Assembly (NCBI RefSeq): GCF_018100785.1
Contig: NZ_JAGJEC010000001.1
Coordinates: 1,054,001 to 1,118,000 of the forward strand
Direction of reading: 5' to 3'
DNA: 64,000 nt
From: Maribacter sp. MMG018
GTDB taxonomy: Bacteria > Bacteroidota > Bacteroidia > Flavobacteriales > Flavobacteriaceae
Made by a program: the position numbers and the translations under genes. Shown here in pieces: positions 17,411 to 48,733 of this stretch. Positions within the stretch are counted from its first letter, which is position 1, and each line of letters starts with the position of its first letter. The notes under the pieces were generated by a model, which was not told the DNA's origin, ran no database searches, and worked only from the letters and a program-made list of their open reading frames with translations.

Positions 17411-19075
17411 TTACCTCTTTATTTTACGAATTAGTTTTTCAAGGTTTTTTTTGTCCGGTACGGTAGTAATTTCTTTTTCCAGTGCATTTTCAAAGTAATC
17501 CAAGGCCAACCGGTCGTATCCTTTTTTATAATTGTAAAGACCTGCTAAATAATAGGCCTCCCAGAAATTGGGGTTCAGTTCGATAAGTTGGTCCAAAACG
17601 GGTTTTTCGATTCTTTCTTCATCGGCTATGGCGTCTTGTACTTGGTTTCTCAATACCCGGTATTGTTCGTAGTTTTTATATTCTTTACTTTGTAAGAACG
17701 GGTCTTTGGCAATGTTGAGGTCGTTTTTTGCTACATCGTGCTTAGGGTCTTTTGCGGTATTAAAAATCTCGTTTAGGTCATATGCTACAAATTCCCCTAA
17801 TTGATATGGGTTGCTAGAAACCCATACCAATAGTTCTTCTGGTTTAAAAACGATGCCATGGTGTGCCAACAATTGATTCAGCGCTTTTTCGTTGCCATAA
17901 CCGATTTTCTTTTCGTCCAACCCTTCTTTATCCCTTAAAATATCTACTACCTTTTTGGGTGTTACCTTTTGCGTTTCGTCTAAAAGCTCTTCCATGCGTT
18001 CATACCTATATTGCGAATGACTTTCTAAAATATGTTTTTGGTTCTTTTTGTCATTTGAATAAGCGGCACTTTGAAAGTGGTTGGCACAGATCAGTTGATT
18101 GGAATTTTCTACTTCGTAAACCCCAAAGTTTTTTGGGGAAACCTCTATGATAGCCGCTTTCTTATCTTTTGCACTACCTACAAAAATGGATTCCGATACG
18201 AATACTTCGCGCTTTTTTGCAATTTCAATGGCCTCATCTATCGTTGAGGCATATTGTAGTATTTCTCTTGTCACCAAAGAAACGGGAGTTTTGGCGACTA
18301 GGGGAAATTGTGATTTACCGGCGTTTATGGTGACGGTAAGTCCTTGGTCGTTCATACCCGATACAACCCCGATCATTCCGCCCCAGGTAACCGACATAAA
18401 TGCATGGCCTTCATCTGGTTTTATAAAAGCGATAATTTTATTTTTTGAAAAATCGTCCCCTGCGTAAAAGTCGAAATTACGGCCTATCAATAATTTGCCA
18501 TCGTCGGTGTGGTCTCCCCACGCCGCAAAAGAAGAACAGCCGACCAAAGCCAAATCTTGCAGGGCATGGCCGATATCATGGGCACCATGAAAGTACATGA
18601 CCCTTTGGTAGGGTTTGGCGATATAGTCGTAATCGGGAGATGCATAGCGTGAAACACCATACAGTTCTACCTTATATTTTTCGTCAATGTTCAGATACAT
18701 TTTACGGTTAAACCATGCCAGAAATTTACGAAGTAGGTTCTGATATCCTTTGGAGGGGACCAGTTCGTCTATTTTTTTTATAAAAAAATCTTCCTGTTCG
18801 TTAAACAGTTCTTGTGTTAAGTGCCCTGTTTTTAGACCTAGTTCTAAGGGGTTTCCGGTTACATATAGCTCCCAGAGCCCTTGTTGGTTCTTTCGCAAGA
18901 AATTATCTTCTATAATAAAGGTAGTATCGTTGATCTGTACCCGCTCTGAAATTTCTGTTCGATATTGTGAAATATCGAGTTCTTCTTTTAATGATTTGGA
19001 TACGCCGCATGAAACCATGCAGCCCATGAGCAAGAAAAGAACAATAAAACGATGTAAGGTGTTTAGGTATCTCAC
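17411..19075 (-). CDS. C45-type Ntn hydrolase / acyltransferase lipoprotein with C-terminal TPR region
   Basis: A 554-residue protein. The N-terminus has a lipoprotein-like signal with cysteines at 19 and 23 (LLMGCMVSCG). The core carries the Ntn-hydrolase pattern of peptidase family C45: LALVGCSSFAAWGDHTDDG with Cys180 as the likely nucleophile, then LIGRNFDFY. The family includes acyl-CoA:6-aminopenicillanate acyltransferase, which self-cleaves before the Cys. The C-terminal region has a TPR-like stretch (FWEAYYLAGLYNYKKGYDRLALDYF). It is the last gene of the pigment operon and directly abuts the cupin gene. An outer-membrane acyl transfer or hydrolysis step is an inference. Confidence 0.78.
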   Translation of the reverse strand: MRYLNTLHRFIVLFLLMGCMVSCGVSKSLKEELDISQYRTEISERVQINDTTFIIEDNFLRKNQQGLWELYVTGNPLELGLKTGHLTQELFNEQEDFFIKKIDELVPSKGYQNLLRKFLAWFNRKMYLNIDEKYKVELYGVSRYASPDYDYIAKPYQRVMYFHGAHDIGHALQDLALVGCSSFAAWGDHTDDGKLLIGRNFDFYAGDDFSKNKIIAFIKPDEGHAFMSVTWGGMIGVVSGMNDQGLTVTINAGKSQFPLVAKTPVSLVTREILQYASTIDEAIEIAKKREVFVSESIFVGSAKDKKAAIIEVSPKNFGVYEVENSNQLICANHFQSAAYSNDKKNQKHILESHSQYRYERMEELLDETQKVTPKKVVDILRDKEGLDEKKIGYGNEKALNQLLAHHGIVFKPEELLVWVSSNPYQLGEFVAYDLNEIFNTAKDPKHDVAKNDLNIAKDPFLQSKEYKNYEQYRVLRNQVQDAIADEERIEKPVLDQLIELNPNFWEAYYLAGLYNYKKGYDRLALDYFENALEKEITTVPDKKNLEKLIRKIKR

Positions 19076-19950
19076 TAAAGAAGGTTTGCTAGGTTTTTAT
19101 GTGTTTTTTTTATGGCCAGTTCATCTTTATAATCCAACCACTTTTGTCCCCAATGTTTTCTTGTAAAATTATCGAAATGACGCATGATCATTACATTATA
19201 TAACATTTGCATGAATTTTTTCGGTTTTCTGGGCAAGGCCCTCAGCGTCATAGAGAAACCACCGTCCAGGTACTTTATATAATGCCAATAGCCACTGGGC
19301 ATAAAAAGCGCATCACCATGTTCCATATGTGCGGTAATACCCTCTGCATATTGCAGCGCTGGATAGGCCTCAAAATCAGGATTATCCATATCTATGGACT
19401 CTAAATTATGAATGGAATATGGAACCCTGTATAAGTATTTAGTTTGATCGGGAGAAAATAAGGTTACATGTTTATGGCCGTCAAAATGAAAATGCATACT
19501 GTCCGGCAAATCAATGTCGTAATGCATAAATACCTTAGATTCGCCACCGCCAAAGAATAGGGCCGGAAGTTTTTTGAAAAACTTGAGCCCTATATCGGGG
19601 TATTCAAAGTCTTGGGCTAGATCGGGCATCTTTTTTAGTATTTCATAAAAGAAGATCCTAAGGTCTGTAGGCTTTGTTTTTAATATTTCTATATACGCTG
19701 CCAGTTTCATTTCCTGTACCGGTTCGTATACACTTTGTTTGTCTTTTGCAGGTTCGTTGTTGTACAACGGAACCACTTGGTCGCCAGCTTTCTCTTGAAT
19801 GTAATCTAGGGTCCATTTTTTATAGGCGGGCCAGTTTTTGGTCATACCCTTGATCAATACCGGTTTTTGGGGTCGGTAATAGTTCTTTACAAAATCTTGC
19901 TTTGAAACGTTTTCTAGAACGGTGATCGGTGTAGTCTTAAAAGTTCCCAT
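19075..19950 (-). CDS. cupin-like (JmjC-type) iron/2-oxoglutarate oxygenase-like protein
   Basis: A 291-residue protein. It opens with KPVLIKGMTKNWPAYKKWT, typical of cupin_8/JmjC-like proteins. The iron facial triad is visible as His-x-Asp in VFMHYDIDLPDSMHF and a distal His in MPSGYWHYIKYL. An Asn/Lys pair for 2-oxoglutarate is not clear. In known members it hydroxylates proteins or small molecules. It overlaps its neighbours by single bases, so it is translated with the carotenoid-isomerase-like oxidoreductase and the C45 protein. An oxidative tailoring step in the pigment pathway is an inference. Confidence 0.8.
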   Translation of the reverse strand: MGTFKTTPITVLENVSKQDFVKNYYRPQKPVLIKGMTKNWPAYKKWTLDYIQEKAGDQVVPLYNNEPAKDKQSVYEPVQEMKLAAYIEILKTKPTDLRIFFYEILKKMPDLAQDFEYPDIGLKFFKKLPALFFGGGESKVFMHYDIDLPDSMHFHFDGHKHVTLFSPDQTKYLYRVPYSIHNLESIDMDNPDFEAYPALQYAEGITAHMEHGDALFMPSGYWHYIKYLDGGFSMTLRALPRKPKKFMQMLYNVMIMRHFDNFTRKHWGQKWLDYKDELAIKKTHKNLANLL

Positions 19951-21500
19951 TAGACTATGGTTTTTTTATTTTCTTTCTCTAAAAGTTTCTTTTTGATCTT
20001 ATTGACCAAGTAAGGGCCTCCCAAAATTTCTGAACAGGTAACCACTCCACTTATGGTAACACCTAAAATGCCGTGCATGTTTAGACTTTGACCTGTTAAG
20101 AATAGATTTTCGATTTTTGTTTTGGGCGATATAAAAGATTTTAAAGGATCGTTTACATCTTTTACATAACCGTACATAGAACCTTGATGGTTGCCAATAT
20201 AATCTCTGTAAGACAATGGCGTGGAGGCATGTACCGACTGTATGCACTCTCTGATATTAGGGAACTTTTTTTCTAATTCTTTTAAAAATATTTCTGTTTT
20301 CTGTTTTTTGAAAGATTGGTATCCAGCACCTCTATCGTTTTTTTGTGACACGGTGTTAAAGGTGTCCTCCCATTCCAAGATTTCTTCATATCTCATATAG
20401 GTGATCGCCGTAAGCTGCTCTCCCCATTCATCTTGGTTTTTTCTGGCTCCCATACAAACCATGTATGTTTCTGGCCAGGTTTCCTCGGTGTACTTATGGC
20501 CCTCCCAAACTTTTTTGTAATCTTTAAAATGGTAATAGTTCTTGTTTAGATATTTAAAGGTTTTGGGCTTTAGCACAATGTGGATACTAAATGCGGAAAT
20601 GATACTTTCCATTTCCTGTATTCGGTAGTTATACGATTTTCTAAAGTTTTCTTCACCTACCAGTTTTAGGGTGTATTTGGGTTCAATGTTAGATATAAAC
20701 AGATCTCCGTACACGATACGGCCATCTTTTGTAGTGGCGGATACCAACTTTTTGTTGTTACAGGTTATATCTACTACCTCACTATGTTTATAGGCCTCCC
20801 CACCATTTTCTTTTAGTTTTCTTACAAGAAGTTTTGTAATCTGGCTACCTCCATCCGCACACCTATAGGCACTTTCTATATAAGAATTAATGGATAGGGC
20901 ATGAACATATAGAGGGGTTTTGTCGGGGTCACCGGCATATAAGAGGTTGGATCCTGCCAAAACGGCCCTAAGTTTCTCATTTTTGGTAATACTGTCAATA
21001 TAGCCCTTGGCAGTTTGCTGAAATAATTCTGGATCGTTACCGTAAGGTTTGCCCTCCTCCAGTTTGTACAAGGGAAATTTATGACATATTTCCTGTAATT
21101 TGGCACTATACGCTTCTATGGCGTTGCGTTCTTCAGGAAATTTTTTGATCAATTGAGCTATAAAATTATCATATCCCTGAGCATGCGGATATACTTCGTC
21201 ATCATTGCCAAAAGAAATGATATCGTAACCGTCTTCATCCAATCTTTTAAATTGGAGACCGTCTAAAATATCCAGATAATCAAAGTACTTATAAAGGTTC
21301 TGGCCTTCCGAAAGTCCTCCGATATAATGCACCCCGGTATCAAAAATAGTACGCTCGCGTACAAAGGTCTGAAGATTGCCACCGTACTGGTTGTTCTTTT
21401 CCAAAACACAGACACTACGACCTTCACGTGCCAGAATGTTGGCCGCAACAAGACCTCCCATTCCGCTACCTATAATAACTACGTCGTAATGTTTTTTCAA
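19950..21500 (-). CDS. FAD-dependent oxidoreductase, phytoene desaturase/CrtISO/retinol saturase-like
   Basis: A 516-residue flavoprotein. The N-terminal dinucleotide motif is YDVVIIGSGMGGLVAANILAREG followed by VLEKNNQYGGN. The C-terminal block is LFLTGQSLNMHGILGVTISG, characteristic of carotenoid isomerases and retinol saturases. These enzymes isomerise or reduce conjugated polyenes. Here the natural substrate would be the conjugated aryl polyene of flexirubin type, which is an inference. Its start overlaps the MMPL-fusion stop by four bases, and its stop touches the cupin gene start, so coupling is tight. Confidence 0.85.
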   Translation of the reverse strand: MKKHYDVVIIGSGMGGLVAANILAREGRSVCVLEKNNQYGGNLQTFVRERTIFDTGVHYIGGLSEGQNLYKYFDYLDILDGLQFKRLDEDGYDIISFGNDDEVYPHAQGYDNFIAQLIKKFPEERNAIEAYSAKLQEICHKFPLYKLEEGKPYGNDPELFQQTAKGYIDSITKNEKLRAVLAGSNLLYAGDPDKTPLYVHALSINSYIESAYRCADGGSQITKLLVRKLKENGGEAYKHSEVVDITCNNKKLVSATTKDGRIVYGDLFISNIEPKYTLKLVGEENFRKSYNYRIQEMESIISAFSIHIVLKPKTFKYLNKNYYHFKDYKKVWEGHKYTEETWPETYMVCMGARKNQDEWGEQLTAITYMRYEEILEWEDTFNTVSQKNDRGAGYQSFKKQKTEIFLKELEKKFPNIRECIQSVHASTPLSYRDYIGNHQGSMYGYVKDVNDPLKSFISPKTKIENLFLTGQSLNMHGILGVTISGVVTCSEILGGPYLVNKIKKKLLEKENKKTIV

Positions 21501-24500
21501 TGTTGTGTTTTTTTGTTTAGTATAATAAAATTATCACTTTGATCACTAATGGAGAAATCTGTATGTGAAACTTCTTTCAAATCAATATTTTCTTTTGGTT
21601 CTAAAAGAATTATCGTTTGAATATCAGGGTTTTTGATTTTTGTTAGTTCGAACTCATTAAGGTGTACAATTAGCAAGTTTGTCGATTGCGACAAGGCCTC
21701 TTCCGCGGTACGGTATACGGTGATCTTGCTATGGTTCTTTGTCAGAAAATTTTGCTTTAAGGCTTCTCTGGATAGTGTGTCGGATAAATAAGTATGTATT
21801 CTTCTGTCCAGTGAGTCCAACGATAACAATAGGTCTAACTGCCCGTCATCTGCCGAAAGATGAACAATAGTTTCTTTGGGGGATATTGATCTAATGATCT
21901 TGTGGTATATTTCAGAATATAGTTTTAGGTCGGTCTTGACCCTTTTGTACATTGCGTCACCTTTATAACGGTAGTTTTCAAGTAAGGTTTTTTTCCAATA
22001 ATCGGAACCTTCTTTTTGCTCACGTAACCGTCTAAACTCTTTTCTAAAGTAAGCGCCTACCAATTTGCCTTTTTTGGTATAATCCTCCCCATATTCTTTA
22101 GAGGAAACCGGTATTCTTGGCAATAACTCTACGGTGATACTGCCATCCCTAATTACAAAACTGCCTTTTGGTAAAACTTCTGAGTTGCCATGAATTAATA
22201 CGGGCAGTAGATCCAAGTTTAATTTTTCGGCCAGGTAAAAGGCACCTTTATGGAATCTTTTGATCTTATTGGTCGTGGAACGTGTTCCTTCGGGAAAAGC
22301 AATAAAAGAAAAGCCCTGCTCCAGTTTGTTCTTTAAATATAGCTCTCCATTTTCTATCCCCCCCGAAACCGGATAAGCCCCTGCTAGCTTGGCTGCCCTT
22401 CCGAATATGGGTGAGTTGTAAACCCAATCGTTGACCAAAAAGATAATTTTTGGGTGTAACATACCAATACATAGAATATCTAGAAAAGAGGTATGGTTGG
22501 CAATGATCATTACCGGTTTTTCAAAGGTTTCGTTATGCGGGTTTACCACTTGTTTTTTTACAAAGGGGTTGGTGTACAATACCGATTTCATGAGAATGGA
22601 GACCGCTTTGTGAAATCGTATGTTTTCTTTTTGCGCTTGATCGGGGTTTATTTTGGTTACGATCCACGCGTATAGAGAGAAAACAATACCGCCAAGACCA
22701 AAATAAATGAAAGACAATACCGAATGGATGAAATATCTTAATGAAATGGGTCTTTTATCCTTATTTCCTATAAAAAGTCGAAATAACTGCGGTTGCAATG
22801 TAAAGGCCACAAAGGCGGCAGAAAATATTCCGATAAGAGAGACCCTTGAGATGGCATATAGTGCAGGATGTTTGGCAAAGACCATGACCCCAACACTGGC
22901 TATGGTCGTAATAATGGATAACAATATAGAGGTCTTATGTGTGGGCAGTGTTTTAACACCGGTCCTATGCTCGGTCAATAGGCCATTGGTAACGAAGATG
23001 CTATAATCCACGCCCAAGCCAAAAATGAAACTGCAGATAATAATGTTAAAAATATTGAACTCTATATTCAGCAACCCCATGATGCCAACGGTTAAAAACC
23101 ATGTTAGAAAAATGGGTATCGCCGTTACCAAAGTCAATGATAGACTTCTGTAAAACAGGGCAAGTATAACCAATACGGTGATCAACGATAACGTCAACAA
23201 GCGGTTAAAGTCATTTTTTAAAGTGCCCAAGAACGACTCGTTCACTTGTTTTCTATTTATAAGCAAGGTATTCCGCTCGTCTTTAAATCGATCTTTTAAA
23301 ATATCAAATTGGTCGTCGTTCAATTTTACCAACGTAGTGGCCGTAGTGCCAGAGCTATCTGTAACTATATAGTCGTCTATGCTCAACAACGGAACTTTCT
23401 CAAGATCGGAAAGGGGCATCGGGGTGAAATTACCATTGAGCCAGGTATAAAAATTTTGAAAGGTACTTTCTTTGAATCCTAGGTCTTTCGAGAAATTATT
23501 AAGGTTTTTTTCTAAGGAATCTATTTTTTTTGACGTCCAAAAATTGCTCCATGAATTGATTTTTTCTTTTTGGGTCTTAGAAGATTTTGCAAGACTGGAG
23601 ACCGAGGTAAAGTTGATAATCTCGTTTTTTTCTTTTAGTTGCCTTAGGTCTTCGTAAAAGGCATCGTTTTTTTGTAAAACCTTTTCCCGATCCTCTCCGT
23701 AAGTAGATAGATAAACGGATTTTGATTCTAGGTCGGTAAGTTTTTCGAGCTTTAGTTTTGCCTTTGTAAGTGCTTTGGACTCATAGTTTAGTTTACTGAT
23801 ATCTTGGTTAAAAGTTACTTTGTTGTAATAAAAGGCGCTTGTTACTATACCTATGACCAAAAGTCCTATGGCCCATTTGTTTTTATGAAACTGAAATGCG
23901 GCCAAGTGTTCCAGAAAATTGGTTTTCTTTTTTACACTTTCTTTATAGACATATACCTGTGGTACAAATAACAAGGCAAAAAGGGACGCTCCGGTCACAC
24001 TTACAGAGGCAAAAATACCTAGGTCTTGTAGCGCTTGTGAGTCTAGGAACAAAAGGCATAAAAAAGCGGAAGCCGTAGTAAGACTGCTCATTATAATAGA
24101 GGGCGCCACCTCGTTATAGAGCATTTTTATACTGTGTCCCTTTCTAATATGGGTAAGTATGTGTAGGGCATAATCTAAGGTAACACCCAATAATATAGCG
24201 CCGATACCCAATGAAATGGCAGAAATATATTCGCGTACCAACGATAGGAATGCCATTGCGACCAGCGCCCCAAAAACGGTGGGGGCAAACAGAATTAGTG
24301 GTAAAGTGAACTTTTTGTAAAAGACTATTAAAAGGATCAGCAAAAGTATCATGGCGATACTTACCGTAAACAAAATATCATTTTTTACCTGCTGTGCATT
24401 GGCCACGGCGACCATGGCGGCACCAAAAAATGACACTTCTATATTGTTTTGGTATTTGGTCTTGAATTTGTTTTCCAGAGTATACAATCCGTCCGATAAA

Positions 24501-25180
24501 GGTTTGTTCTCTACCGTGGCGCTAGATGGGTTTACAGGGGTTAAAAAGAGTAAAATATTTGTTTCTTCCTTGTTCAGTAAAAAGCCATTATGGAGTTTAA
24601 AATCTTCTGCTACCCCTAGTTTTTGAAGTTTTTTTAAAGCAATAAATGATAGGCCCAAAGGGTCTTTGAGGATGCTTTTTTTAGAAATAATACCGGACGG
24701 GGATATAAGCGTTCGGTAATTTTGTTCCATTTGACGTTGTATACTGTCCTTCGATAATTTAAGGTCTATGGCCTGATAATCTCTCTCCTCAAGAAACAGA
24801 GGAAGGTGCTCGTATACGAGATCTAACATATGAAAGACTTCGGTATCGTTTACCTTGCCCTGAACCTTTTTGACATAGGGTGAAAGGTCTTTTAAAACAC
24901 TGTCCGTAAACTCAGAGGCATACTGGGTGAGTTCATCTATAGAGGTATTGGGGCCTTTTTCAATATTAACGATGATCTTATCGGTAAATGAAATGGACTT
25001 AAGTACTTTTTGAATTCGAAGTGTTTCCTTATTGGAGGGAATTAAAGCGGTGATATCATCTTTAAAATTGACTTTTGAGGCTAAAAACAAAAGAACAAAT
25101 ACCATTAGCAAAAGTAACGATATGCTAAGGCCCTTGTGGTTTTTTATAGAATGATATGTCTTCAGAAAAAAATTACCCAT
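21497..25180 (-). CDS. MMPL/RND lipid exporter fused to a PlsC-type acyltransferase and a C-terminal MTase-like domain
   Basis: A 1227-residue fusion. Residues 1-830 form an RND/MMPL transporter with an N-terminal helix, two large soluble loops and two bundles of membrane helices (for example LLLILLIVFYKKF and IIICSFIFGLGVDYSI). Residues 875-1060 are a lysophosphatidate-acyltransferase-like domain with ANHTSFLD (His896, Asp901; canonical HX4D) and FPEGTRS near 964. Residues 1075-1227 look like a degenerate class I methyltransferase fold (IVHLSADDGQLDLLLSLD), where the usual glycine-rich loop is lost. The gene overlaps the GT2 gene by 8 bases and the oxidoreductase by 4. It probably acylates and moves the lipid pigment or its precursor. 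Confidence 0.85.
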   Translation of the reverse strand: MGNFFLKTYHSIKNHKGLSISLLLLMVFVLLFLASKVNFKDDITALIPSNKETLRIQKVLKSISFTDKIIVNIEKGPNTSIDELTQYASEFTDSVLKDLSPYVKKVQGKVNDTEVFHMLDLVYEHLPLFLEERDYQAIDLKLSKDSIQRQMEQNYRTLISPSGIISKKSILKDPLGLSFIALKKLQKLGVAEDFKLHNGFLLNKEETNILLFLTPVNPSSATVENKPLSDGLYTLENKFKTKYQNNIEVSFFGAAMVAVANAQQVKNDILFTVSIAMILLLILLIVFYKKFTLPLILFAPTVFGALVAMAFLSLVREYISAISLGIGAILLGVTLDYALHILTHIRKGHSIKMLYNEVAPSIIMSSLTTASAFLCLLFLDSQALQDLGIFASVSVTGASLFALLFVPQVYVYKESVKKKTNFLEHLAAFQFHKNKWAIGLLVIGIVTSAFYYNKVTFNQDISKLNYESKALTKAKLKLEKLTDLESKSVYLSTYGEDREKVLQKNDAFYEDLRQLKEKNEIINFTSVSSLAKSSKTQKEKINSWSNFWTSKKIDSLEKNLNNFSKDLGFKESTFQNFYTWLNGNFTPMPLSDLEKVPLLSIDDYIVTDSSGTTATTLVKLNDDQFDILKDRFKDERNTLLINRKQVNESFLGTLKNDFNRLLTLSLITVLVILALFYRSLSLTLVTAIPIFLTWFLTVGIMGLLNIEFNIFNIIICSFIFGLGVDYSIFVTNGLLTEHRTGVKTLPTHKTSILLSIITTIASVGVMVFAKHPALYAISRVSLIGIFSAAFVAFTLQPQLFRLFIGNKDKRPISLRYFIHSVLSFIYFGLGGIVFSLYAWIVTKINPDQAQKENIRFHKAVSILMKSVLYTNPFVKKQVVNPHNETFEKPVMIIANHTSFLDILCIGMLHPKIIFLVNDWVYNSPIFGRAAKLAGAYPVSGGIENGELYLKNKLEQGFSFIAFPEGTRSTTNKIKRFHKGAFYLAEKLNLDLLPVLIHGNSEVLPKGSFVIRDGSITVELLPRIPVSSKEYGEDYTKKGKLVGAYFRKEFRRLREQKEGSDYWKKTLLENYRYKGDAMYKRVKTDLKLYSEIYHKIIRSISPKETIVHLSADDGQLDLLLSLDSLDRRIHTYLSDTLSREALKQNFLTKNHSKITVYRTAEEALSQSTNLLIVHLNEFELTKIKNPDIQTIILLEPKENIDLKEVSHTDFSISDQSDNFIILNKKTQH

Positions 25181-26342: not shown

Positions 26343-26441
26343 TCTCTCTTGTATGGCAGTGGGGGCGGGCACGTTTATATGATGGATGTTGTTTTTTAGT
26401 TAGTGGATAATGGTTTGGGCAAAGATACGCATTAGAGAAAG

Positions 26442-27295: not shown

Positions 27296-27328
27296 ATATG
27301 TTGTTTTGTATCCTCAAAAGGAAGCTGT

Positions 27329-38598: not shown

Positions 38599-38600
38599 AG

Positions 38601-40630: not shown

Positions 40631-41556
40631 TAATTCTCTTTTAACTCAACCGATGAAAAATAAGCTATGTCTTTTTTTCTTCGTTTATAGCTCGGTAAAT
40701 AAGCTATCAAAAATACGATAAAAACTATAGGGGCTATGACCCATATGGCAAATAACAAATAAATTTTGAACAAACCAATCCATTTCAGGCGTTTGGGGGT
40801 TCCAGGGGCTCCTTTCTTTATAATTAGATTCGCCCATTTATTGAATAGTATATTACCGCGCTCGTCCGTCTTTATTAAAAAAGGATTAACGACCAGACCT
40901 CCCATTTTTACCAATTTGTCTTGCAATTGGATAAAATTATTGGAAAGCAATGCTTCTTTTATCGGGGTTCCGAACCGTGCCGCTTCTTGTATGTCTTTGT
41001 CGGACACGCCAGGTTTTGGAAAAATTCCCAAATAGCGGTCTTTTTTTCCCGAAAGCATCCAGTGTGCAATGGTAATTACACTAATGTTGTTCATATTACG
41101 GTCCACTAGGGCTACATGGCCCACTAAATTTGCACCCGCATCACGTAACAGGCGCTTCATTTTTTCTTGCGCCATGAGCCACATGTTTCTACAGGCGACG
41201 ACCGTGACTACGGGAGTGTCCTTTAATACTTTTTTAGCCGCTTCTGATTTTAAAAATGAGTTTATCGGAATTGATGGCGTAAGATACCAAACCTGATAAC
41301 CTAACAGCACAAGATCGTATTTCTTATTCAAGATCTCTTTGGACGGGGGTTGGAAATTGCGGGGTATCTGTAAAAAGGACTCGGGGAAGACATCATAGAA
41401 TTTCTTGTTCTCCCAAGGAAACTCAAAGATTGGGTCGGGTATTATTTCGAAGTAATTAATGTTTATACCTTCGCCATGTATTTCTTTGGCCATGTTTTCC
41501 AATATGGTCAAGAGTTGACCCGTTTGGGTGTAATAAACAATTAATACTTCTTTCAT
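40630..41556 (-). CDS. darA: dialkylresorcinol aromatase/condensing enzyme DarA
   Basis: About 308 residues. It starts with a flavodoxin-like domain (KEVLIVYYTQTGQLLTILENM and VLLGYQVWYLTPS) and ends with a hydrophobic C-terminal helix (FKIYLLFAIWVIAPIVFIVFLI) that may anchor it to the membrane. DarA completes the aromatisation of the DarB product to dialkylresorcinol. I chose ATG at 41556, whose ATGA overlaps the acyltransferase stop; the longer ORF from 41577 is less likely. It is followed directly by darB. Confidence 0.85.
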   Translation of the reverse strand: MKEVLIVYYTQTGQLLTILENMAKEIHGEGININYFEIIPDPIFEFPWENKKFYDVFPESFLQIPRNFQPPSKEILNKKYDLVLLGYQVWYLTPSIPINSFLKSEAAKKVLKDTPVVTVVACRNMWLMAQEKMKRLLRDAGANLVGHVALVDRNMNNISVITIAHWMLSGKKDRYLGIFPKPGVSDKDIQEAARFGTPIKEALLSNNFIQLQDKLVKMGGLVVNPFLIKTDERGNILFNKWANLIIKKGAPGTPKRLKWIGLFKIYLLFAIWVIAPIVFIVFLIAYLPSYKRRKKDIAYFSSVELKEN

Positions 41557-42440
41557 TTTTTTAGGCTGTCTTTCCAAAAGTCAAAATAATTAAACCATTG
41601 CAGGGGGTATTTTTTTAATATCCATTCCATGCTCAGGGTATATTCTTTGAGCAGGGCCTGAGGGTCTCTGGCCTTTGCTACCGCTTTTCTCGCATATAAA
41701 TGGTACTCTCTTTCCGGTCCTTTCATGACATAGACGAACAGTACCGGAACTTTTAAGCGAGATGCCAAAACATAAGGTCCCATAGGGAATTCCGCTTCGG
41801 CCCCAAGAAATTCTTGTTTCAAGGTTTTTGTTCCGGGAAGATAACGATCTCCGGTAAAAACAACTAATCCTCCTTTGTCCAATGCCGCATGAATTTCAAA
41901 TATGTGAGACATATCGTCTTTTACAACTATGAACTCCATAGATGATTCCGATACTTGACTTTCCATGTATTCTTTAATGTTCTCCCTCTCGGCATGGGTC
42001 GTTACCATATGTATTTTTGAAATGGAGTAACGACTTTCCAAGAAGTAATGAGACACCTCAAAGTTGCCTATGTGTCCACTAATTAGAATACCTCCTTTGT
42101 TCTGTTTTAATAAATGGTCTATATGTTCAATACCATCATGTGTGTACGAGAATTTATCCTTAAATACGGTCGATATGGCAAACCGGTCGGTAAGCACCTT
42201 GCCCAATGCATAGTAGTTCTTGTATATGCACAAGATACTTTTCGTGGTAGAATACTTTAATCGTTTTTTAAAGTAATAATAGATGGCCTTTGAGCTATCA
42301 AAAGAGAACAGAAAATAATAAAGTACTATAAACCGAAGTATAAAATAGGCAGTGCCTATTCCAAAAGTTTTAAGGAAAAAAATGTACAGTTTATATCCTA
42401 GTAGAGTGCCTTTTGATTTTCCTTTCCACTCGGTTGCCAT
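41553..42440 (-). CDS. LpxL/HtrB-family acyltransferase
   Basis: A 295-residue membrane-associated acyltransferase. One N-terminal hydrophobic region (YFILRFIVLYYFLFSF) is followed by the family's catalytic motif ISGHIGNFEVSHYF (HX4E) and by VVFTGDRYLPGTK. Members add acyl chains from acyl-ACP to lipid A sugars. In aryl polyene clusters related proteins are thought to attach the polyene to a lipid head, so ester formation between polyenoyl-ACP and the resorcinol is a good inference. It ends in the DarA start overlap. Confidence 0.85.
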   Translation of the reverse strand: MATEWKGKSKGTLLGYKLYIFFLKTFGIGTAYFILRFIVLYYFLFSFDSSKAIYYYFKKRLKYSTTKSILCIYKNYYALGKVLTDRFAISTVFKDKFSYTHDGIEHIDHLLKQNKGGILISGHIGNFEVSHYFLESRYSISKIHMVTTHAERENIKEYMESQVSESSMEFIVVKDDMSHIFEIHAALDKGGLVVFTGDRYLPGTKTLKQEFLGAEAEFPMGPYVLASRLKVPVLFVYVMKGPEREYHLYARKAVAKARDPQALLKEYTLSMEWILKKYPLQWFNYFDFWKDSLKK

Positions 42441-42464: not shown

Positions 42465-42710
42465 TTAGTCCAGTTTTCTTTCTATTAGGTCATAGAAGTC
42501 CTGCAATGTTACGATGTTGACAAAATCCTCACCTACCAACTTAACCCCGAAATTGCTTTCTACGGCAACTACTAGATCCACAAAATCCAAGCTATCCAAG
42601 CCAATGGCCTCTTTAAGGTTGGCACCAGGTTCCAATGCTTCTTCCTCGACCTCAAAGTCGTCTATGAGAAAGTCGTTAATTTTTTCAATTATGGTTTGTT
42701 TGGTCATCAT
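42465..42710 (-). CDS. acyl carrier protein 2
   Basis: An 81-residue acidic carrier protein. The phosphopantetheine serine is Ser40 in AIGLDSLDFVDLVV. It differs clearly from ACP1 in sequence. It lies between the KS and acyltransferase genes just before darA and darB, so it may hold the acyl units for resorcinol assembly or the acyltransferase. Start by ATG-ATG at 42710, overlapping the KS stop by one base. Confidence 0.9.
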   Translation of the reverse strand: MMTKQTIIEKINDFLIDDFEVEEEALEPGANLKEAIGLDSLDFVDLVVAVESNFGVKLVGEDFVNIVTLQDFYDLIERKLD

Positions 42711-43933
42711 TATTGGTCAACACTTTTTACGATTAAAGCGGAATTTGTTCCGCCAAATCCAAATGAATTGGACAAAAATACGTCAATTTTTTTATCTATC
42801 GTTTTACGGGCAATGTTTAGTTTGGCAGAATCTTCGTCTGGGTTTTCCAAGTTAATATTAGGGGCGATAAAACCGTTTTGCATCATTAACATAGAATAGA
42901 CCACTTCACTGGCGCCTGCCATCCAACACTCATGGCCTGTCATAGATTTTGTAGAACTTACAAAGGGTTTGTTTTCTCCAAAAACTTCATGAATCGCCTT
43001 TGCTTCATTGGCATCGCCAACGGTTGTAGAGGTTGCATGGGCGTTTACGTAATCTATATCAGAGGTTTTAAGGGTGGCGTCCTCTAATGCTTTTTTCATA
43101 GCTCTGGCAGGGCCGTCAACATTGGGCGTAGAGATATGGTCACCATTGGAAGAAAAGCCGTAACCGACCACTTCGGCAAGTATGGGTGCGCCACGTTTTA
43201 CGGCAGATTCGTAGCTTTCTAAAATTACGGTCGCCGCACCACCGCTGGGTATTAGGCCGTTTCTGTCCTTATCAAAGGGTCTAGATGCCTTGGTGGGTTC
43301 GTCCGGTCTAACGGCGAATACTCCCAAACCGTCGAAACTTGCCATAGAAATATGGTTGATCTCTTGTGCCCCGCCCGTTATTATACAGTCTTGAAGGCCA
43401 CTTTTTATCAGTTGGTACGCAAGCCCGATAGAGTGCGATCCACTGGCGCAAGCTGCACTTAGGGTAAGGTTGATGCCCTTTAGTTTAAAAATGGTGGACA
43501 GGTTCATGGTCACCGTAGAGTTCATGCCCTTGAAAATGGCTCCTGAACCTACCAGGGTCGTGTCTTTTTTCTCTTTAATGGTATCTATAGATTGTACAAC
43601 GGATAGTGCTGTACTATCATTGCCATAGATGATGCCTACTTCGTTATTATCAAAAAAGTCTTGGTCTATTTTTGCGTTTTTCATCGCTTCGAGAGAAGCT
43701 ACATAGGCATACCTGCTTTCCTCGCCCATACTTATACGTTGTCTTCTGGAAAGCATTTTTTTTAGGTCGGGGTCTTCGACAACCCCAGTTAATGGAGACC
43801 TATAGCCAAATTCTGTACGAACTGGGTCGATGGATATTCCAGATTTTCCTTCGTAAAGAGATTTTTTTACCTCTTCTAGATTCTTGCCTATACAAGAGTA
43901 TATGCCCATACCGGTAATTACTACTCGCTTCAT
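42710..43933 (-). CDS. beta-ketoacyl-ACP synthase II-like (FabF family)
   Basis: A 407-residue ketosynthase with Cys in LSAACASGSHSIGLAY, His in VNAHATSTTVGDANE and His in MTGHECWMAGASEVV. All three catalytic residues are present. The NAHAT and HECWMAG blocks differ from the usual NAHGT and HTLGAAG, which may reflect unusual substrates. It should elongate an acyl chain on ACP2. It lies 16 bases after the FabG gene. Confidence 0.9.
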   Translation of the reverse strand: MKRVVITGMGIYSCIGKNLEEVKKSLYEGKSGISIDPVRTEFGYRSPLTGVVEDPDLKKMLSRRQRISMGEESRYAYVASLEAMKNAKIDQDFFDNNEVGIIYGNDSTALSVVQSIDTIKEKKDTTLVGSGAIFKGMNSTVTMNLSTIFKLKGINLTLSAACASGSHSIGLAYQLIKSGLQDCIITGGAQEINHISMASFDGLGVFAVRPDEPTKASRPFDKDRNGLIPSGGAATVILESYESAVKRGAPILAEVVGYGFSSNGDHISTPNVDGPARAMKKALEDATLKTSDIDYVNAHATSTTVGDANEAKAIHEVFGENKPFVSSTKSMTGHECWMAGASEVVYSMLMMQNGFIAPNINLENPDEDSAKLNIARKTIDKKIDVFLSNSFGFGGTNSALIVKSVDQ

Positions 43934-43949
43934 CCTCCTCTTTCTTTTA

Positions 43950-44696
43950 CTATGAATAAATACCTCCGTTAATATTTATTACCTCTCCCGTAATGTAAGA
44001 TGCCTTGTTAGAGGCTAAAAATGAGACTACGTCGGCCACCTCTTCGGGTTTGCCAAATCTATTTGCGGGTATCATTTTTTTAAGTTCCGACTCGTCCAAT
44101 TCTTCGGTCATGTCGGTTTCAATAAAGCCTGGAGCAACTGCGTTTACAGTTACTTTTCTTTTTGCAACTTCTTGTGCCAAGGCCTTCGTGGCCCCGATTA
44201 CAGCACTTTTGGCAGCGGAATAGTTGGTTTGTCCGGGAGTACCTTTTAAACCGGATACAGAAACTATATTGATTATTCTTCCGTATTTATTGACCAATAA
44301 TTTTTGTATCAAGGCATTGGTTACATGGTAGAAACCGTTAAGGCTGGTGTTGATCACAGATGACCAATCTTCTGGGCTCATCCACATGAAAAGACCGTCT
44401 TTTTTTATTCCGGCATTGTTTACCAATACTTCGATAACCGCATTTTCGTTTGTATTGTGCCAATTGTCCAAGGTAGATTTGACACTTTCGTTGTCGGTAA
44501 CGTTGAATTGTATTATTTCTCCAGATCCGCCCGCTGCTTCTACTAGGGCAAGCGTTTCCTCGGCGGCCGTTTTATTGGTGTTGTAATTTATCAGTAATTT
44601 ATAATCCAGGTCCTTGGCCAATTGTATGCAAACAGCTCTTCCGATTCCTCTAGATCCGCCTGTTACCAAGGCGTACTTGGTCTTTTCCTTTCCCAT
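43950..44696 (-). CDS. 3-oxoacyl-ACP reductase (FabG-like)
   Basis: A 248-residue short-chain dehydrogenase. Cofactor motif TGGSRGIGRAV, NNAGIKKDG, catalytic Ser in INIVSVSGLKG and Tyr-x3-Lys in TNYSAAKSAVIG. It is the only clear ketoreductase in the cluster, so it probably serves all elongation cycles. Directly upstream of the FabF-type KS gene. Confidence 0.92.
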   Translation of the reverse strand: MGKEKTKYALVTGGSRGIGRAVCIQLAKDLDYKLLINYNTNKTAAEETLALVEAAGGSGEIIQFNVTDNESVKSTLDNWHNTNENAVIEVLVNNAGIKKDGLFMWMSPEDWSSVINTSLNGFYHVTNALIQKLLVNKYGRIINIVSVSGLKGTPGQTNYSAAKSAVIGATKALAQEVAKRKVTVNAVAPGFIETDMTEELDESELKKMIPANRFGKPEEVADVVSFLASNKASYITGEVININGGIYS

Positions 44697-44715: not shown

Positions 44716-45837
44716 TTAATTCTTTACGAACGGTTCCGCATTTTGGTACCATTTGTTACCTAAAAGCTCTCCTTTTGTATTAAAGAAGCCCCATCCTTTT
44801 TTAGATTTTAGTCTAGCATAGTCGCCTAAAAAGCCTTTGTCATTGTTACCTGCTAAAAAGGCCAATCCTGCAGTAATGCTGTATTCTGTCGGAATTATCA
44901 TGTTTCCGGAGGTGTCGATGAATCCCCAATTTTTTTCTTTTACGGGTGCCAATCCGTTGGCAGAGAATACTTCGGCATCCCTATATTGAAAATCTATGAC
45001 CGTTTTACCTTCCATATCTATATACCCCCACTCTTTGTCTTTGGCAACGGGTGCCAATCCGTTGGAGAATGCTCTTGCTTTACTGTATGTTGGTGGTATT
45101 ACCCATTCTCCCTTAGAGTTTACAAAACCTGTTTTTTTATCTTTTCTTGCATAAGTAAGGCCAGAATCACCATGAAAGTTCCATACTTTATCTGCGCCTT
45201 CGATTACGTTAAAAGTGCCGTTGTGTATAATTCCGAAATTACCTCCTTTTTTTCCGTACACTCCAGAGGTGTTGTAGGTATTCCCGATTTCTTCATATTC
45301 AAAAGGGACGATTACTTCACCCTTATTGTTGATCATGCCCCACAACTCTCCTTTTCTGGCTTTCGCATAGCCATCTCTAAATGCTTTTATTTCATCATAG
45401 GTAGGCTCTAGAATGGTTTTGCCATCGGTGCCTATAAGGCCTATTTTGTCATTTTGGCGAATAAGGGCCACACCCTCTTGAAAATCGTAATATTTATCCG
45501 ATGCCGGTGCATTAAGTTCTTTTTCGTTTTTATCGATATACCTCCATTGATCGTCCTTTAAGACCAGTGCGTAACCGGAATTGAAGTATTTGACCTTGTC
45601 GTACGTTGGTTCAATGACCCATTCTCCTTTTGTATTGATAAAGCCCCAGGCCTTATCTTTTTCTGCTGCTGCCAAACCTTCAGAGAAGCTTTTGGCTACT
45701 TTGTACTGTGGTTTTATAATATATTCACCAGACTTGTTGATGTAACCGAACAGCCCGTCTTCGCGAACCAAGGCCAGTTCCTGGGCAAAGGACATCGAGA
45801 AACAGAATACTAATAATAGTGAGAAAGCTTTTTTCAT
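44716..45837 (-). CDS. secreted WG-repeat protein
   Basis: A 373-residue protein with a signal peptide (MKKAFSLLLVFCFSMSFAQ). It consists of about eight to nine WG repeats of the type WGFINTKGEWVIEPTYD, each about 40-45 residues. The family is of unknown function, often extracellular. It overlaps the lyase stop as ATGA, which ties it to the pigment operon. A role in envelope packing of the pigment is possible but not shown. Confidence 0.85.
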   Translation of the reverse strand: MKKAFSLLLVFCFSMSFAQELALVREDGLFGYINKSGEYIIKPQYKVAKSFSEGLAAAEKDKAWGFINTKGEWVIEPTYDKVKYFNSGYALVLKDDQWRYIDKNEKELNAPASDKYYDFQEGVALIRQNDKIGLIGTDGKTILEPTYDEIKAFRDGYAKARKGELWGMINNKGEVIVPFEYEEIGNTYNTSGVYGKKGGNFGIIHNGTFNVIEGADKVWNFHGDSGLTYARKDKKTGFVNSKGEWVIPPTYSKARAFSNGLAPVAKDKEWGYIDMEGKTVIDFQYRDAEVFSANGLAPVKEKNWGFIDTSGNMIIPTEYSITAGLAFLAGNNDKGFLGDYARLKSKKGWGFFNTKGELLGNKWYQNAEPFVKN

Positions 45838-47369
45838 GACTTTTTATTTTGATGGTTTATAATATAGTTCTTTACTTCATTTACATAAGGATACATAACC
45901 TTATCTTCTTTGAATGGGGGAACTATTTTACGAACAGCATCGTACATTTTTTTGGTTTTCGAGGAAACCTTGTCCTTTACTTCCAAATATTCTATTGCCT
46001 GTACAATAGTTATCATTTCTATGGCAACTACCTCAAAGGCGTTTTCAATTACTTTTTTTGTAATCAGGGCCGCGTTGGTACCCATGCTTACAATATCTTG
46101 ATTGTCGTTATTGTTCGGTATACTGTGAACGTACATGGGGTTCGACAACATTTGGTTTTCTGCCGTTGTCGATGTGGCCGTGAACTGCACACCTTGCATT
46201 CCGAAATTTAATCCTAATGTACCTAAATTAACGAAAGGAGGCAAGATATCGTTTAACTTAGAGTTAAGAAGGTAATTAAGTTGTCTCTCGGCGAGCATAC
46301 TCATTTTCGTAACGACTATTTTAAGCTTGTCCATTTCTAGGGATACGTAATCGCCATGAAAATTACCGCCATGGTAAACATTTTGTTTTTCGATGTTTAC
46401 GATGGGGTTGTCGTTGGCAGAATTCACCTCTTCTATAAGAATTCGTTCAACTTCGTTCAAGGTATCCAATACGGGACCCAATATTTGGGGAACACAACGA
46501 ATAGAGTAGTATTCTTGTACTTTTTCTTCGAACACGGCCACATCATTGTTGGCATTGTATAAATGATGTTCTCTTTTTCTGGTCAAAGTACTGTCCTCTA
46601 AATGGCTGCGCATAGATCTTGCGATCTCTCGCTGGCCTTTGTGTCTTTTGGTTTGGTTGAGTTCAAAAGAGAGATGGTCGTCATAGGCCTGCATAATTTC
46701 ATTGATGGCGGAAGAACAAGCAATGGCCCATTCTAGCAATCTTCGGGTGTAAATGGTATTTACAATGCCGATTCCGGTCATTACCGAAGTACCGTTTATA
46801 AGCCCTAGCCCTTCTCGCAACTCTACTTTTATAGGTTGTATGCCCTCTATTTTGAAAACTTCTGCTGTGGGTCTTTTTTCTCCTTTGTAGAAAACTTCGC
46901 CTTCACCTATAAGTACAAGTGCCAAATGTGCCAATTGGACCAAATCTCCACTTGCCCCGACACCGCCATGTTCATAGATTAAAGGGATAATATCTTTGTT
47001 CAATAATTCTGTCATTACCTTAACAACAGATACGTGTACTCCAGAATTCCCCAAGCTTAAGGTGTTTAACCTTGCCAACATGGCCGCTTTCACATATTTG
47101 GGAGGAATCGGATTTCCGGTTCCGGAAGCATGGCTGCGTATAAGATTGTACTGCAGTTCCAATGTTTCCGAATCTTTTATCTTGTATTGGGCCATGGGGC
47201 CAAATCCGGTATTTACACCGTAAATAACTTTGTTTTTTGAAAACTCTTTTAAGAAGTTGTGACTTTCTTCTACTGTGCTTAGGAGTTTATCTGAAAGGTG
47301 AATGTCTTTTTTCTCAAATATGACATCGTAAAATTCCTTAATTCCTAGGCTTCCTGTAATTTCTGGCAT
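45834..47369 (-). CDS. tyrosine ammonia-lyase (aromatic amino acid lyase)
   Basis: A 511-residue MIO enzyme. The prosthetic group should form from Ala139-Ser140-Gly141 in HGGVGASGDLVQLAH. It has the GVNTGFGP motif near residue 51 and conserved NDNPI and QDIVSMG blocks. From memory it is very close to the tyrosine ammonia-lyase of the Flavobacterium johnsoniae pigment cluster, more than to typical histidine ammonia-lyases. No hut genes are nearby. It should make 4-coumarate as the aryl starter. It is the first gene of the minus-strand operon. The substrate is not proven here. Confidence 0.88.
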   Translation of the reverse strand: MPEITGSLGIKEFYDVIFEKKDIHLSDKLLSTVEESHNFLKEFSKNKVIYGVNTGFGPMAQYKIKDSETLELQYNLIRSHASGTGNPIPPKYVKAAMLARLNTLSLGNSGVHVSVVKVMTELLNKDIIPLIYEHGGVGASGDLVQLAHLALVLIGEGEVFYKGEKRPTAEVFKIEGIQPIKVELREGLGLINGTSVMTGIGIVNTIYTRRLLEWAIACSSAINEIMQAYDDHLSFELNQTKRHKGQREIARSMRSHLEDSTLTRKREHHLYNANNDVAVFEEKVQEYYSIRCVPQILGPVLDTLNEVERILIEEVNSANDNPIVNIEKQNVYHGGNFHGDYVSLEMDKLKIVVTKMSMLAERQLNYLLNSKLNDILPPFVNLGTLGLNFGMQGVQFTATSTTAENQMLSNPMYVHSIPNNNDNQDIVSMGTNAALITKKVIENAFEVVAIEMITIVQAIEYLEVKDKVSSKTKKMYDAVRKIVPPFKEDKVMYPYVNEVKNYIINHQNKKS

Positions 47370-47440: not shown

Positions 47441-47485
47441 AAATAATTAGCGAATTAGGATACTTATTGTCAGGGAAATAATCCA

Positions 47486-48733
47486 ATGAAGAAAAAAGAA
47501 AAAGTAGATGTATTGATTATTGGGGCCGGGCCATCTGGTTCTGTTGCGGCTTCTTATCTGTTTAACGAAGGCTTTTCCGTAAAGGTAGTCGAAAAGAATA
47601 GGTTTCCTAGGTTTGTTATCGGTGAAAGCCTAATTCCGAGGTGTATGGATCACTTTGAGGCAGTTGGTTTGTTGGATTGTCTGAAGGAAAAGGGCTTTGA
47701 AATTAAGACCGGGGCAAGGTTTTTACAGGGGGCTAAAGCTTGTGAGTTCGATTTCAGTAAGAAACATACCGAAGGTTGGGACTGGACTTGGCAGGTGCCA
47801 CGGGCCGATTTTGATAAGACATTGACAGACGAACTAATAAAAAGGGGCGTTGATATCGATTTTGAAAAAGAGGTTACCGCGGTTGATTTTGTTGACGACC
47901 GCTCCGTTACTACTATTTTGGACAAAGATGGTAATACATTAAAAGTCGAAGCTAGGTTTATAATAGATTCCAGCGGTTTTGGTAGGGTATTGCCCAGGTT
48001 ATTGAATCTGGACAAACCTTCTGAAATACCAAAGCACTCTTCTATATTTACACATGTAAAGGATGTAAACAGACCCGAAGGTTGGGAAGGCCATAGAATT
48101 ACCTTTGATATCGTAAGCAAAGAAACGTGGCTATGGGTGATTCCTTTTTCCGATGGGTATACCAGTATCGGGTATGTAGGGCCAACTGAATATTTGGCAT
48201 CTTTTAAAGGTACCAATACCGAAAAACTTCAAGAAATGATGAAGCTGTCGGATCATTATTATGAGAGGTTTCAGGACCTGCCTTATGAGTTTGAGCCTAG
48301 AATATTGAAGAATATTGCTAAGTCGGTTAAACAGTTATATGGGGATGGATACGTACTTACGGGCAACAGTGCCGAGTTTTTAGATCCGGTATTCTCTTCT
48401 GGGGTGGCTTTTGCAACAGAGTCGGCTCATTTGTCCGCTAAATTAATTGCAAAAGAACTTAGGGGGGAATCGGTTGATTGGGAAACCGAATATTCGGACT
48501 ATATATTAGAAGGTGTACGTGTTTTTTCTACCTATGTGAAAGAGTGGTATACGGGCAATTTGCAGAAAATTTTCTTTGCCGATTCCGAAAATCCTGTTAT
48601 TAAGTCACAGATATGTGCAGTGCTTGCAGGCTATGTGTGGGACAAGACGAATCCGTTCGTTAAAAACCATCATAGGCTAGTGAAAACAGTGGCACATATA
48701 ACGGATATGGAAAAAGAAAACGCCAACAGTTAA
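47486..48733 (+). CDS. FAD-dependent halogenase-like oxidoreductase
   Basis: A 415-residue flavoprotein. It has the FAD-binding GxGxxG (VLIIGAGPSGSVAAS), the halogenase WxWxIP signature at 215-220 (WLWVIP), a DPVFSSG block at 300-306 and Lys74 where halogenases keep a catalytic lysine. Known flexirubins can be chlorinated on the aryl ring, and such genes occur in their clusters. A geranylgeranyl reductase-like enzyme is the main alternative. It is divergent from the lyase gene, across a 116-base shared control region, and ends inside a perfect hairpin. Confidence 0.75.
   Translation: MKKKEKVDVLIIGAGPSGSVAASYLFNEGFSVKVVEKNRFPRFVIGESLIPRCMDHFEAVGLLDCLKEKGFEIKTGARFLQGAKACEFDFSKKHTEGWDWTWQVPRADFDKTLTDELIKRGVDIDFEKEVTAVDFVDDRSVTTILDKDGNTLKVEARFIIDSSGFGRVLPRLLNLDKPSEIPKHSSIFTHVKDVNRPEGWEGHRITFDIVSKETWLWVIPFSDGYTSIGYVGPTEYLASFKGTNTEKLQEMMKLSDHYYERFQDLPYEFEPRILKNIAKSVKQLYGDGYVLTGNSAEFLDPVFSSGVAFATESAHLSAKLIAKELRGESVDWETEYSDYILEGVRVFSTYVKEWYTGNLQKIFFADSENPVIKSQICAVLAGYVWDKTNPFVKNHHRLVKTVAHITDMEKENANS

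What the first reader, a model, noticed from the sequence alone, without database searches (positions are those of the whole stretch)
17411..48733. Large flexirubin-type DAR/aryl polyene pigment cluster as one nearly gapless operon
Genes from the lyase (47369) to the C45 protein (17411) all lie on the minus strand with overlaps or gaps under about 100 bases. They contain darA/darB, two ACPs, KS/CLF, FabG, dehydratases, a methyltransferase, a lyase and lipid transport genes, and a halogenase runs divergently. This fits synthesis of a polyene ester of a dialkylresorcinol. The families are known from flexirubin and aryl polyene work, but this set with its fused and dead enzymes has parts with no assigned role.
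Basis: partly seen in the sequence, partly recalled or inferred. Interest (0 to 1): 0.7.

Follow-up and report, generated by a model that had tools for sequence, protein, structure and literature searches.

The report
Flexirubin pigment cluster lacking its ligase
This is an ordinary, well-kept gene cluster for the orange bacterial pigment flexirubin, except that one enzyme gene of the published pathway is missing and appears to have been replaced by an unrelated gene elsewhere in the genome, a swap that seems to have happened at least twice.

Summary
In detail: 31 minus-strand genes (47369 to 17411), junctions of -34 to +69 bases, and a divergent halogenase. It is a flexirubin cluster of a Maribacter species: six NCBIfam flexirubin/DAR equivalogs and the DarB model score over cut-off, and the gene order recurs in relatives. 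The nearest relative, M. thermophilus, is listed as flexirubin-positive.

What is not ordinary: FlxY, the characterised 4-coumarate-CoA ligase, was not found in cluster or genome. Of 71 FlxA- or DarH-bearing genomes searched, 59 have it and 12 lack it. All 12 carry an unlinked feruloyl-CoA-synthase-type ligase, found in 0 of 41 FlxY-bearing genomes tested and 0 of 14 same-genus genomes without DarH over cut-off. The 12 are not one clade; they form three clades on the cluster-gene tree, but rpoB secures only two. I infer repeated non-orthologous displacement, probably by a ligase from hydroxycinnamate catabolism.

The parts
47486..48733 (+). FAD-dependent halogenase (divergent)
   Evidence: Pfam Trp_halogenase 4e-26; CmlS model below cut-off; homolog in the fetched stretch of 24 of 28 genomes
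45834..47369 (-). FlxA, tyrosine ammonia-lyase
   Evidence: NF053541 898.6 bits, cut-off 700
44716..45837 (-). WG-repeat protein, role unknown
   Evidence: PF14903; 17 of 28 genomes
43950..44696 (-). FlxB, ketoreductase
   Evidence: NF053542 418 bits, cut-off 340
42710..43933 (-). ketosynthase 1, Cys-His-His present
42465..42710 (-). acyl carrier protein 1
   Evidence: PF00550; DSL serine
41553..42440 (-). LpxL/HtrB-like acyltransferase
   Evidence: PF03279
40630..41577 (-). DarA (by position and cluster homology), flavodoxin-like
   Evidence: weak Flavodoxin_4; homologs beside DarB in relatives
39497..40630 (-). DarB, dialkylresorcinol ketosynthase
   Evidence: NF053539 650 bits, cut-off 550
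39062..39496 (-). FabZ-like hot-dog protein DH1
   Evidence: FabZ models below cut-off
38601..39056 (-). FabZ-like hot-dog protein DH2
   Evidence: FabZ models below cut-off
38188..38634 (-). DarG
   Evidence: NF053545 214 bits, cut-off 170
37197..38204 (-). DarH, BtrH-type acyltransferase; proposed flexirubin ester synthase
36427..37170 (-). ABC transporter ATPase
   Evidence: PF00005
35166..36440 (-). ABC-2 permease
   Evidence: PF12698
34739..35176 (-). 4HBT thioesterase
   Evidence: PF13279
33604..34746 (-). ketosynthase 2, Cys-His-His present
32480..33541 (-). FlxJ-type methyltransferase
   Evidence: NF053543 460.6 bits, below its cut-off 560
31878..32474 (-). half-length KS-like protein, no KS Cys or His motif found; CLF-like
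   Evidence: AF2 pLDDT 88.5; Foldseek matches KS/CLF, ApeC 6qsp_B at rank 9
31617..31871 (-). acyl carrier protein 2
   Evidence: PF00550; DSI serine
30359..31558 (-). ketosynthase 3, Cys-His-His present
29295..30392 (-). chain-length-factor-like KS without catalytic Cys
28525..29301 (-). polysaccharide-deacetylase-like protein
   Evidence: PF01522
27915..28532 (-). LolA2
   Evidence: NF053544 223 bits, cut-off 125
27329..27934 (-). LolB2
   Evidence: NF053540 244 bits, cut-off 60
26927..27295 (-). FabA/ApeI-like hot-dog protein DH3
   Evidence: PF07977
26442..26927 (-). 161-aa protein, role unknown
   Evidence: no family; homolog in 23 of 28 genomes, the same 23 stretches that hold DarH
25173..26372 (-). 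GT2 glycosyltransferase with DUF2062
21497..25180 (-). MMPL exporter fused to acyltransferase
   Evidence: PF03176 and PF01553
19950..21500 (-). CrtD/carotenoid-isomerase-like FAD oxidoreductase
   Evidence: models below cut-off
19075..19950 (-). cupin_8 (2OG-oxygenase-like), present in few relatives
   Evidence: PF13621; 6 of 28 genomes
17411..19075 (-). C45 autoproteolytic acyltransferase/hydrolase; flxY directly follows this gene in 14 of 24 FlxY-bearing genomes (positions) but not here
   Evidence: NF040521 239 bits, cut-off 85; no FlxY here

Best explanation
The region makes a flexirubin: tyrosine is deaminated by FlxA to 4-coumarate, which is activated to its CoA thioester, extended by the type II ketosynthases, FlxB-type reductase and hot-dog dehydratases on an ACP to an aryl polyene, methylated and probably chlorinated; DarA/DarB make the dialkylresorcinol; the two are joined as an ester and exported by the LolA/LolB/MMPL set. 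Two steps are specific claims of this report. (1) In this lineage the activation step is not done by FlxY, which was not found, but by an unlinked feruloyl-CoA-synthase-type ligase (FCS; genome G000:C10:218000-219865, 622 aa), a non-orthologous displacement that occurred at least twice and, by the cluster-gene tree, three times. (2) DarH is the likely enzyme that moves the polyene from an ACP to the dialkylresorcinol hydroxyl through a cysteine acyl-enzyme. The identity of the cluster and the FlxY/FCS exclusion pattern are shown; the activities are inferred.
Against: In 3 of 12 genomes (G007, G014, G354) FCS sits in a hydroxycinnamate/vanillate-type catabolic locus and in 4 more beside an SDR, so its kept role may be catabolic. 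rpoB does not reject Pareuzebyella plus the Pseudozobellia group as one clade (p-AU 0.745, likelihood higher than the free tree), so only two switches are secure on the species tree. The paired sign test gives p 0.25 and cannot be significant with three pairs; the chance-coincidence figure of 3e-6 to 5e-6 assumes three gains placed by branch length; with two it is about 4e-5 (my arithmetic from the branch lengths there). The cupin co-varies too: in 9 of 9 FlxY-lacking genomes whose cluster end I saw and in 2 of 24 FlxY-bearing ones. FCS is never inside the cluster. G228 has a 51% FCS homolog without FlxA over cut-off. FlxY absence in the named genomes rests on a threshold of 1e-60. DarH: G276 has FlxA and a DarB-like protein (below cut-off, no DarA found beside it) but no DarH; only one FlxA-only genome was available. 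No product or activity was measured.
Confidence: 0.66

Rival explanations
1. A completely standard flexirubin cluster; the missing FlxY is covered by a generic acyl-CoA ligase of primary metabolism, and the FCS is only for degrading algal or plant hydroxycinnamates.
For: The window's genome has 8 PF00501 matches; FCS lies in a catabolic locus in 3 of 12 genomes.
Against: In 53 FlxA- or DarH-bearing genomes tested for both, FCS and FlxY are never both present and never both absent (at the thresholds used); a control ligase (L212) shows no such pattern; in 5 of 12 genomes, the window's among them, none of the catabolic genes of G007 was found in the 20-40 kb around FCS.
Confidence: 0.25
2. The cluster has lost function with FlxY and is decaying, or makes only dialkylresorcinol.
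For: FlxY is gone with only chance-level matches in the window and the relatives' loci searched.
Against: All 31 frames are open, dN/dS 0.013-0.166; the closest FlxY-lacking relative is listed flexirubin-positive.
Confidence: 0.04
3. The ester bond is made by the C45 acyltransferase-like protein (probably the FlxW of C. pinensis, proposed there as the joining enzyme) and not by DarH.
For: Schoner et al. proposed FlxW (PMC3992019); C45 has a homolog in 25 of 28 genomes.
Against: C45 is kept in G156, which lacks DarB and DarH, so it follows the polyene and not the ester, in this one case; its N-terminus looks like a lipoprotein signal (sequence, my reading). That FlxW equals C45 is my inference from gene order.
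Confidence: 0.2

Closest known systems
Flavobacterium johnsoniae flexirubin cluster (Fjoh_1078 onward, darB Fjoh_1102)
   Same: Known from PMC3992019: one cluster of about 37 kb with darA/darB inside.
   Different: The ten g17 genomes with FlxA over cut-off carry FlxY after C45 and no cupin; the window lacks FlxY. F. johnsoniae itself was not identified among the genomes.
Chitinophaga pinensis flxA-flxY plus separate darAB
   Same: TAL, ketosynthases, reductases, dehydratases, deacetylase, LolA, glycosyltransferase, exporter (PMC3992019, parts 1-2 of 5 read).
   Different: dar genes are separate there; FlxY is present and biochemically proven; not found here.
Azoarcus arcuflavin arc/dar clusters
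   Same: Aryl polyene joined to dialkylresorcinol; the dar cluster holds a BtrH-like gene and ABC transporter genes (PMC3949708, passages).
   Different: Starter is 3-hydroxybenzoate, loci unlinked, betaproteobacterium.
CcbD, CtaG, AziU3 (solved structures)
   Different: 10-14% identity; not flexirubin enzymes; their bond-forming roles are recalled, apart from the entry titles.
Feruloyl-CoA synthase of hydroxycinnamate catabolism
   Same: 41-46% identity over most of the length to plasmid proteins so annotated.
   Different: In the window's genome none of the catabolic genes found beside it in G007 was seen in 40 kb.

Membership tests
Flexirubin (flx plus dar) cluster | tyrosine ammonia-lyase FlxA | tested here: met
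   NF053541 over cut-off
Flexirubin (flx plus dar) cluster | dialkylresorcinol enzymes DarA and DarB | tested here: met
   DarB over cut-off; DarA by homology and position only
Flexirubin (flx plus dar) cluster | type II ketosynthase, ACP, ketoreductase, dehydratase set | tested here: met
Flexirubin (flx plus dar) cluster | product is an aryl polyene ester of a dialkylresorcinol | not testable with these tools
   nearest relative M. thermophilus listed flexirubin-positive (PMC10942906)
C. pinensis-type flx cluster with FlxY (not filed as this) | 4-coumarate-CoA ligase FlxY encoded | tested here: not met
   no match in G000 at E <= 0.001; chance-level matches in the window
BtrH-type carrier-protein-dependent acyltransferase (DarH) | fold of CcbD/CtaG/AziU3 | tested here: met
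BtrH-type carrier-protein-dependent acyltransferase (DarH) | Cys-His-Asp triad | tested here: met
   C17, H130, D146 invariant in 31 sequences; equivalence to CtaG C11, H128, D144 judged from numbering and entry titles, not residue by residue
BtrH-type carrier-protein-dependent acyltransferase (DarH) | acyl transfer from ACP to the resorcinol | not testable with these tools
   needs assay
Feruloyl-CoA synthase (G000:C10:218000-219865) | full-length similarity to annotated feruloyl-CoA synthases | tested here: met
   best NCBIfam model NF009232 (an acyl-CoA synthetase subfamily) 705.9 bits, below its cut-off 777
Feruloyl-CoA synthase (G000:C10:218000-219865) | CoA ligation of 4-coumarate | not testable with these tools
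   shown for the Streptomyces enzyme only (PMC3696112)

The most novel reading that the evidence does not exclude
Marine Flavobacteriaceae have at least twice, probably three times, handed the activation of the flexirubin starter to a ligase captured from hydroxycinnamate catabolism. Because such ligases also take ferulate and caffeate, these strains could prime the pigment with scavenged algal or plant hydroxycinnamates and make flexirubins with 3-methoxy or 3-hydroxy head groups not found in FlxY strains.
Probability: 0.15. Interest if true: 0.7.

Novelty: new variant of a known kind. Interest (0 to 1): 0.45.

Why it matters
The cluster itself is known. The FlxY/FCS exchange gives a clean, testable case of repeated enzyme replacement in a pigment pathway used as a chemotaxonomic marker, and warns that a cluster-only reading would call the pathway incomplete. 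Naming DarH as the ester-forming candidate makes the joining step of flexirubin synthesis, for which PMC3992019 only proposed an enzyme, directly testable by one deletion.

Tried and rejected
L212 ligase (G000:C1:978628-980229) as the FlxY substitute: close homologs (93-100%) in 3 of 12 FlxY-lacking genomes, otherwise distant paralogs or none. The L211 ligase was not searched on its own; the query also hits it at 32% in the window's genome and similar-length paralogs in many others.

A flxY remnant next to C45: only chance-level matches in the window and the loci searched (best E 0.28); an SSB-like gene on the plus strand (16985-17317; named by eye from its sequence) follows instead. In four further FlxY-lacking clusters (L307-L310) only chance-level matches too (best E 0.096).

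A single origin of the exchange: rejected on both trees for all 12. Two origins on the species tree: not rejected (Pareuzebyella plus Pseudozobellia group, rpoB p-AU 0.745), though rejected on the cluster tree (3.4e-5).

Promoters: Bacteroidota-type pattern (recalled consensus) 6 matches in the window against 3.5 expected; sigma-70-type 36 and 49 matches against about 44 each; no information. No Rfam match in the window at gathering thresholds. A perfect 10-pair palindrome in the ACP2-KS3 gap (31580-31603) is imperfect in M. thermophilus and different in the other printed relatives; 38 of 60 such gaps fold below -6 kcal/mol, so I drew nothing from it.

Solved relatives by sequence: none for the half-KS, one chance-level for DarH; ketosynthases, mostly FabF-type, for the CLF; only a carboxylic acid reductase at 1e-20 for FCS.

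In print: no paper of the held library has both flexirubin and feruloyl-CoA. No bioRxiv and few subscription papers are held.

Rows dropped: G156 was left out of the cluster-gene tree because it lacks the dar genes. Of the 80 loci, 45 were searched for FlxY; all 10 FlxY-lacking (three through their G handles) and 17 of the 35 FlxY-bearing went into. Of the 24 same-genus relatives, G008-G010, G013, G021 and G024 were not used further. G354 has a frameshifted assembly (its rpoB is broken too); its split FCS was counted as present. and the rpoB part used the first 4200 of 8304 trimmed columns. Absence of the halogenase and cupin in the named loci was not used, because those loci end too early.
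Full report
What is there. The window lies at G000:C1:1054001-1118000; by DarH the closest named records are M. thermophilus (96%) and M. flavus (91%), so I call it a Maribacter. From 47369 to 17411, 31 genes run on the minus strand with 18 of 30 junctions overlapping and no gap above 69 bases. The halogenase at 47486 runs the other way. NCBIfam models made for flexirubin or dialkylresorcinol synthesis score over cut-off for FlxA, FlxB, DarB, DarG, DarH, LolA2 and LolB2; the FlxJ methyltransferase model matches below its cut-off.

Is it ordinary? Mostly. I fetched the surroundings of FlxA or DarH in 28 G-handle genomes and mapped the window's genes on them. The four genomes of the window's genus and the ten of genus code g17 carry almost the same order; five genomes of family code f5 carry the same genes split into two opposed blocks; more distant genomes hold the polyene and dar genes apart or only in part within the stretches fetched. 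Homologs are present in the stretch for the MMPL-acyltransferase gene in 25 of 28, the CLF and the half-length KS in 26 each, C45 in 25, the FAD oxidoreductase in 24, the halogenase in 24, the methyltransferase in 9 and the cupin in 6. dN/dS against M. thermophilus is 0.013-0.166.

The missing ligase. In C. pinensis FlxY was shown to make 4-coumaroyl-CoA (PMC3992019, parts 1 and 2 of 5 read). None of the 31 cluster proteins matched an AMP-binding model. A FlxY from G028 (NF053551, 735 bits) finds FlxY in 24 of 24 FlxA-bearing genomes outside the window's genus, at 45-100% identity (100% is G028 itself). Of the 5 cluster-bearing Maribacter genomes in that call four, the window's included, have no match at E 0.001 and G002 only a 28% partial hit; five FlxA-less controls gave only weak hits. 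Of 45 named DarH-bearing genomes 35 have it at 1e-60 and 10 do not: M. thermophilus, M. flavus, Maribacter sp. 4G9 and PR1, M. litopenaei, two Pseudozobellia, Euzebyella saccharophila, Cytophaga sp. FL35 and Pareuzebyella sediminis. The other 24 and 35 share no length of the cluster-bearing contig, so I count 59 with it. Other species named Maribacter, for example M. vaceletii, have it.

The candidate replacement. Among the eight AMP-binding matches of the window's genome one of 622 aa (G000:C10:218000-219865) resembles feruloyl-CoA synthases: 39 plasmid records match over the threshold, and 8 of the 20 shown are annotated feruloyl-CoA synthase at 41-46% identity (NCBIfam). Searched over 50 genomes it is in 12 of 12 FlxY-lacking genomes, 0 of 24 FlxY-bearing ones and 0 of 14 same-genus genomes without DarH over cut-off (DarH, where G022 has a weak match). 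Over 296 Bacteroidota it is in 2, the window's genome and G228, hence in none of 17 further FlxY-bearing genomes. A control ligase does not behave so.

How many events. The 12 genomes are seven Maribacter, four of the Pseudozobellia-Euzebyella group, and Pareuzebyella. On an rpoB-rpoC tree and a tree of eleven cluster proteins they form three clades, and rebuilt trees need three changes of each trait, always together. A single clade is rejected (p-AU 2.8e-6 for rpoB, 7.6e-5 for the cluster). But supports around Pareuzebyella are low on the species trees, its neighbour differs between trees, and rpoB does not reject it as sister of the Pseudozobellia group (p-AU 0.745); the cluster proteins do (3.4e-5). 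So two exchanges are secure and three are likely. A length-weighted chance coincidence of three gains is 3e-6 to 5e-6, about 4e-5 for two by the same arithmetic; the paired sign test gives only 0.25. The FCS tree does not follow the species tree closely, which suggests lateral movement of FCS.

Where the replacement comes from. In G007 FCS is flanked by acyl-CoA dehydrogenase, AraC regulator, SDR, enoyl-CoA hydratase, DUF3237, MFS transporter, amidohydrolase, a VanA-type oxygenase and a Fer2 protein that I call VanB-like; homologs of all of these lie around it in G014 and G354, only the SDR in four others, and none was found in the window's genome and M. thermophilus (40 kb each), M. flavus, 4G9 and Pareuzebyella (20 kb each). 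I read this as a catabolic ligase that was kept after its neighbours were lost because the pigment needs it; this is inference. That such enzymes can do the job is known: Streptomyces Fcs transforms p-coumaric acid at 1.88 against 2.77 for ferulic acid (PMC3696112, passages). M. thermophilus, without FlxY and with FCS, is listed as flexirubin-positive in PMC10942906 (passages; its table takes these data from earlier descriptions, and antiSMASH agreed there). A second co-varying gene is the cupin: 9 of 9 FlxY-lacking genomes whose cluster end I saw have it, against 2 of 24 FlxY-bearing ones; close FlxY-bearing relatives were not looked at for it, so this may be ancestry.

Verdict.

Noticed in passing
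G000:C10:218000-219865 (L215:3001-4869) against L223: FCS synonymous divergence from M. thermophilus is 0.135 while the printed cluster genes show 0.32-0.92: the locus looks recently exchanged between the two species.
   Followed up: no
window 16985-17317 +: An SSB-like gene (named by eye) stands, convergent, directly after C45 where flxY stands in 14 of 24 FlxY-bearing genomes; a strong terminator-like hairpin lies at 17329-17358.
   Followed up: partly
window 19075-19950: Cupin_8 (2OG-oxygenase-like, HxD motif seen by eye) is in 9 of 9 FlxY-lacking genomes whose cluster end was seen and in FlxY-bearing G220 and G156 only among 24, suggesting an extra tailoring step.
   Followed up: partly
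window 27295-27329: Several relatives have about 0.6 kb more between LolB2 and DH3 than the window and M. thermophilus (positions); perhaps a lost small gene.
   Followed up: no
G000:C1:978628-980229 (L212): A ligase beside a KASIII-like gene (named by eye) is as close to one in Pseudozobellia thermophila (94%) as to M. thermophilus (93%): probable lateral transfer.
   Followed up: no
window 31580-31603: Perfect 10-pair palindrome in the ACP2-KS3 gap, imperfect in M. thermophilus and different in the other relatives printed.
   Followed up: yes
G010:C1:242932-243905: DarH of another genome of the genus is read in two pieces with an internal stop; a decaying cluster or sequencing error.
   Followed up: no
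window 26442-26927: The 161-aa protein of unknown family is present in exactly the 23 of 28 fetched stretches that hold DarH; it may belong to the dialkylresorcinol or joining step.
   Followed up: no
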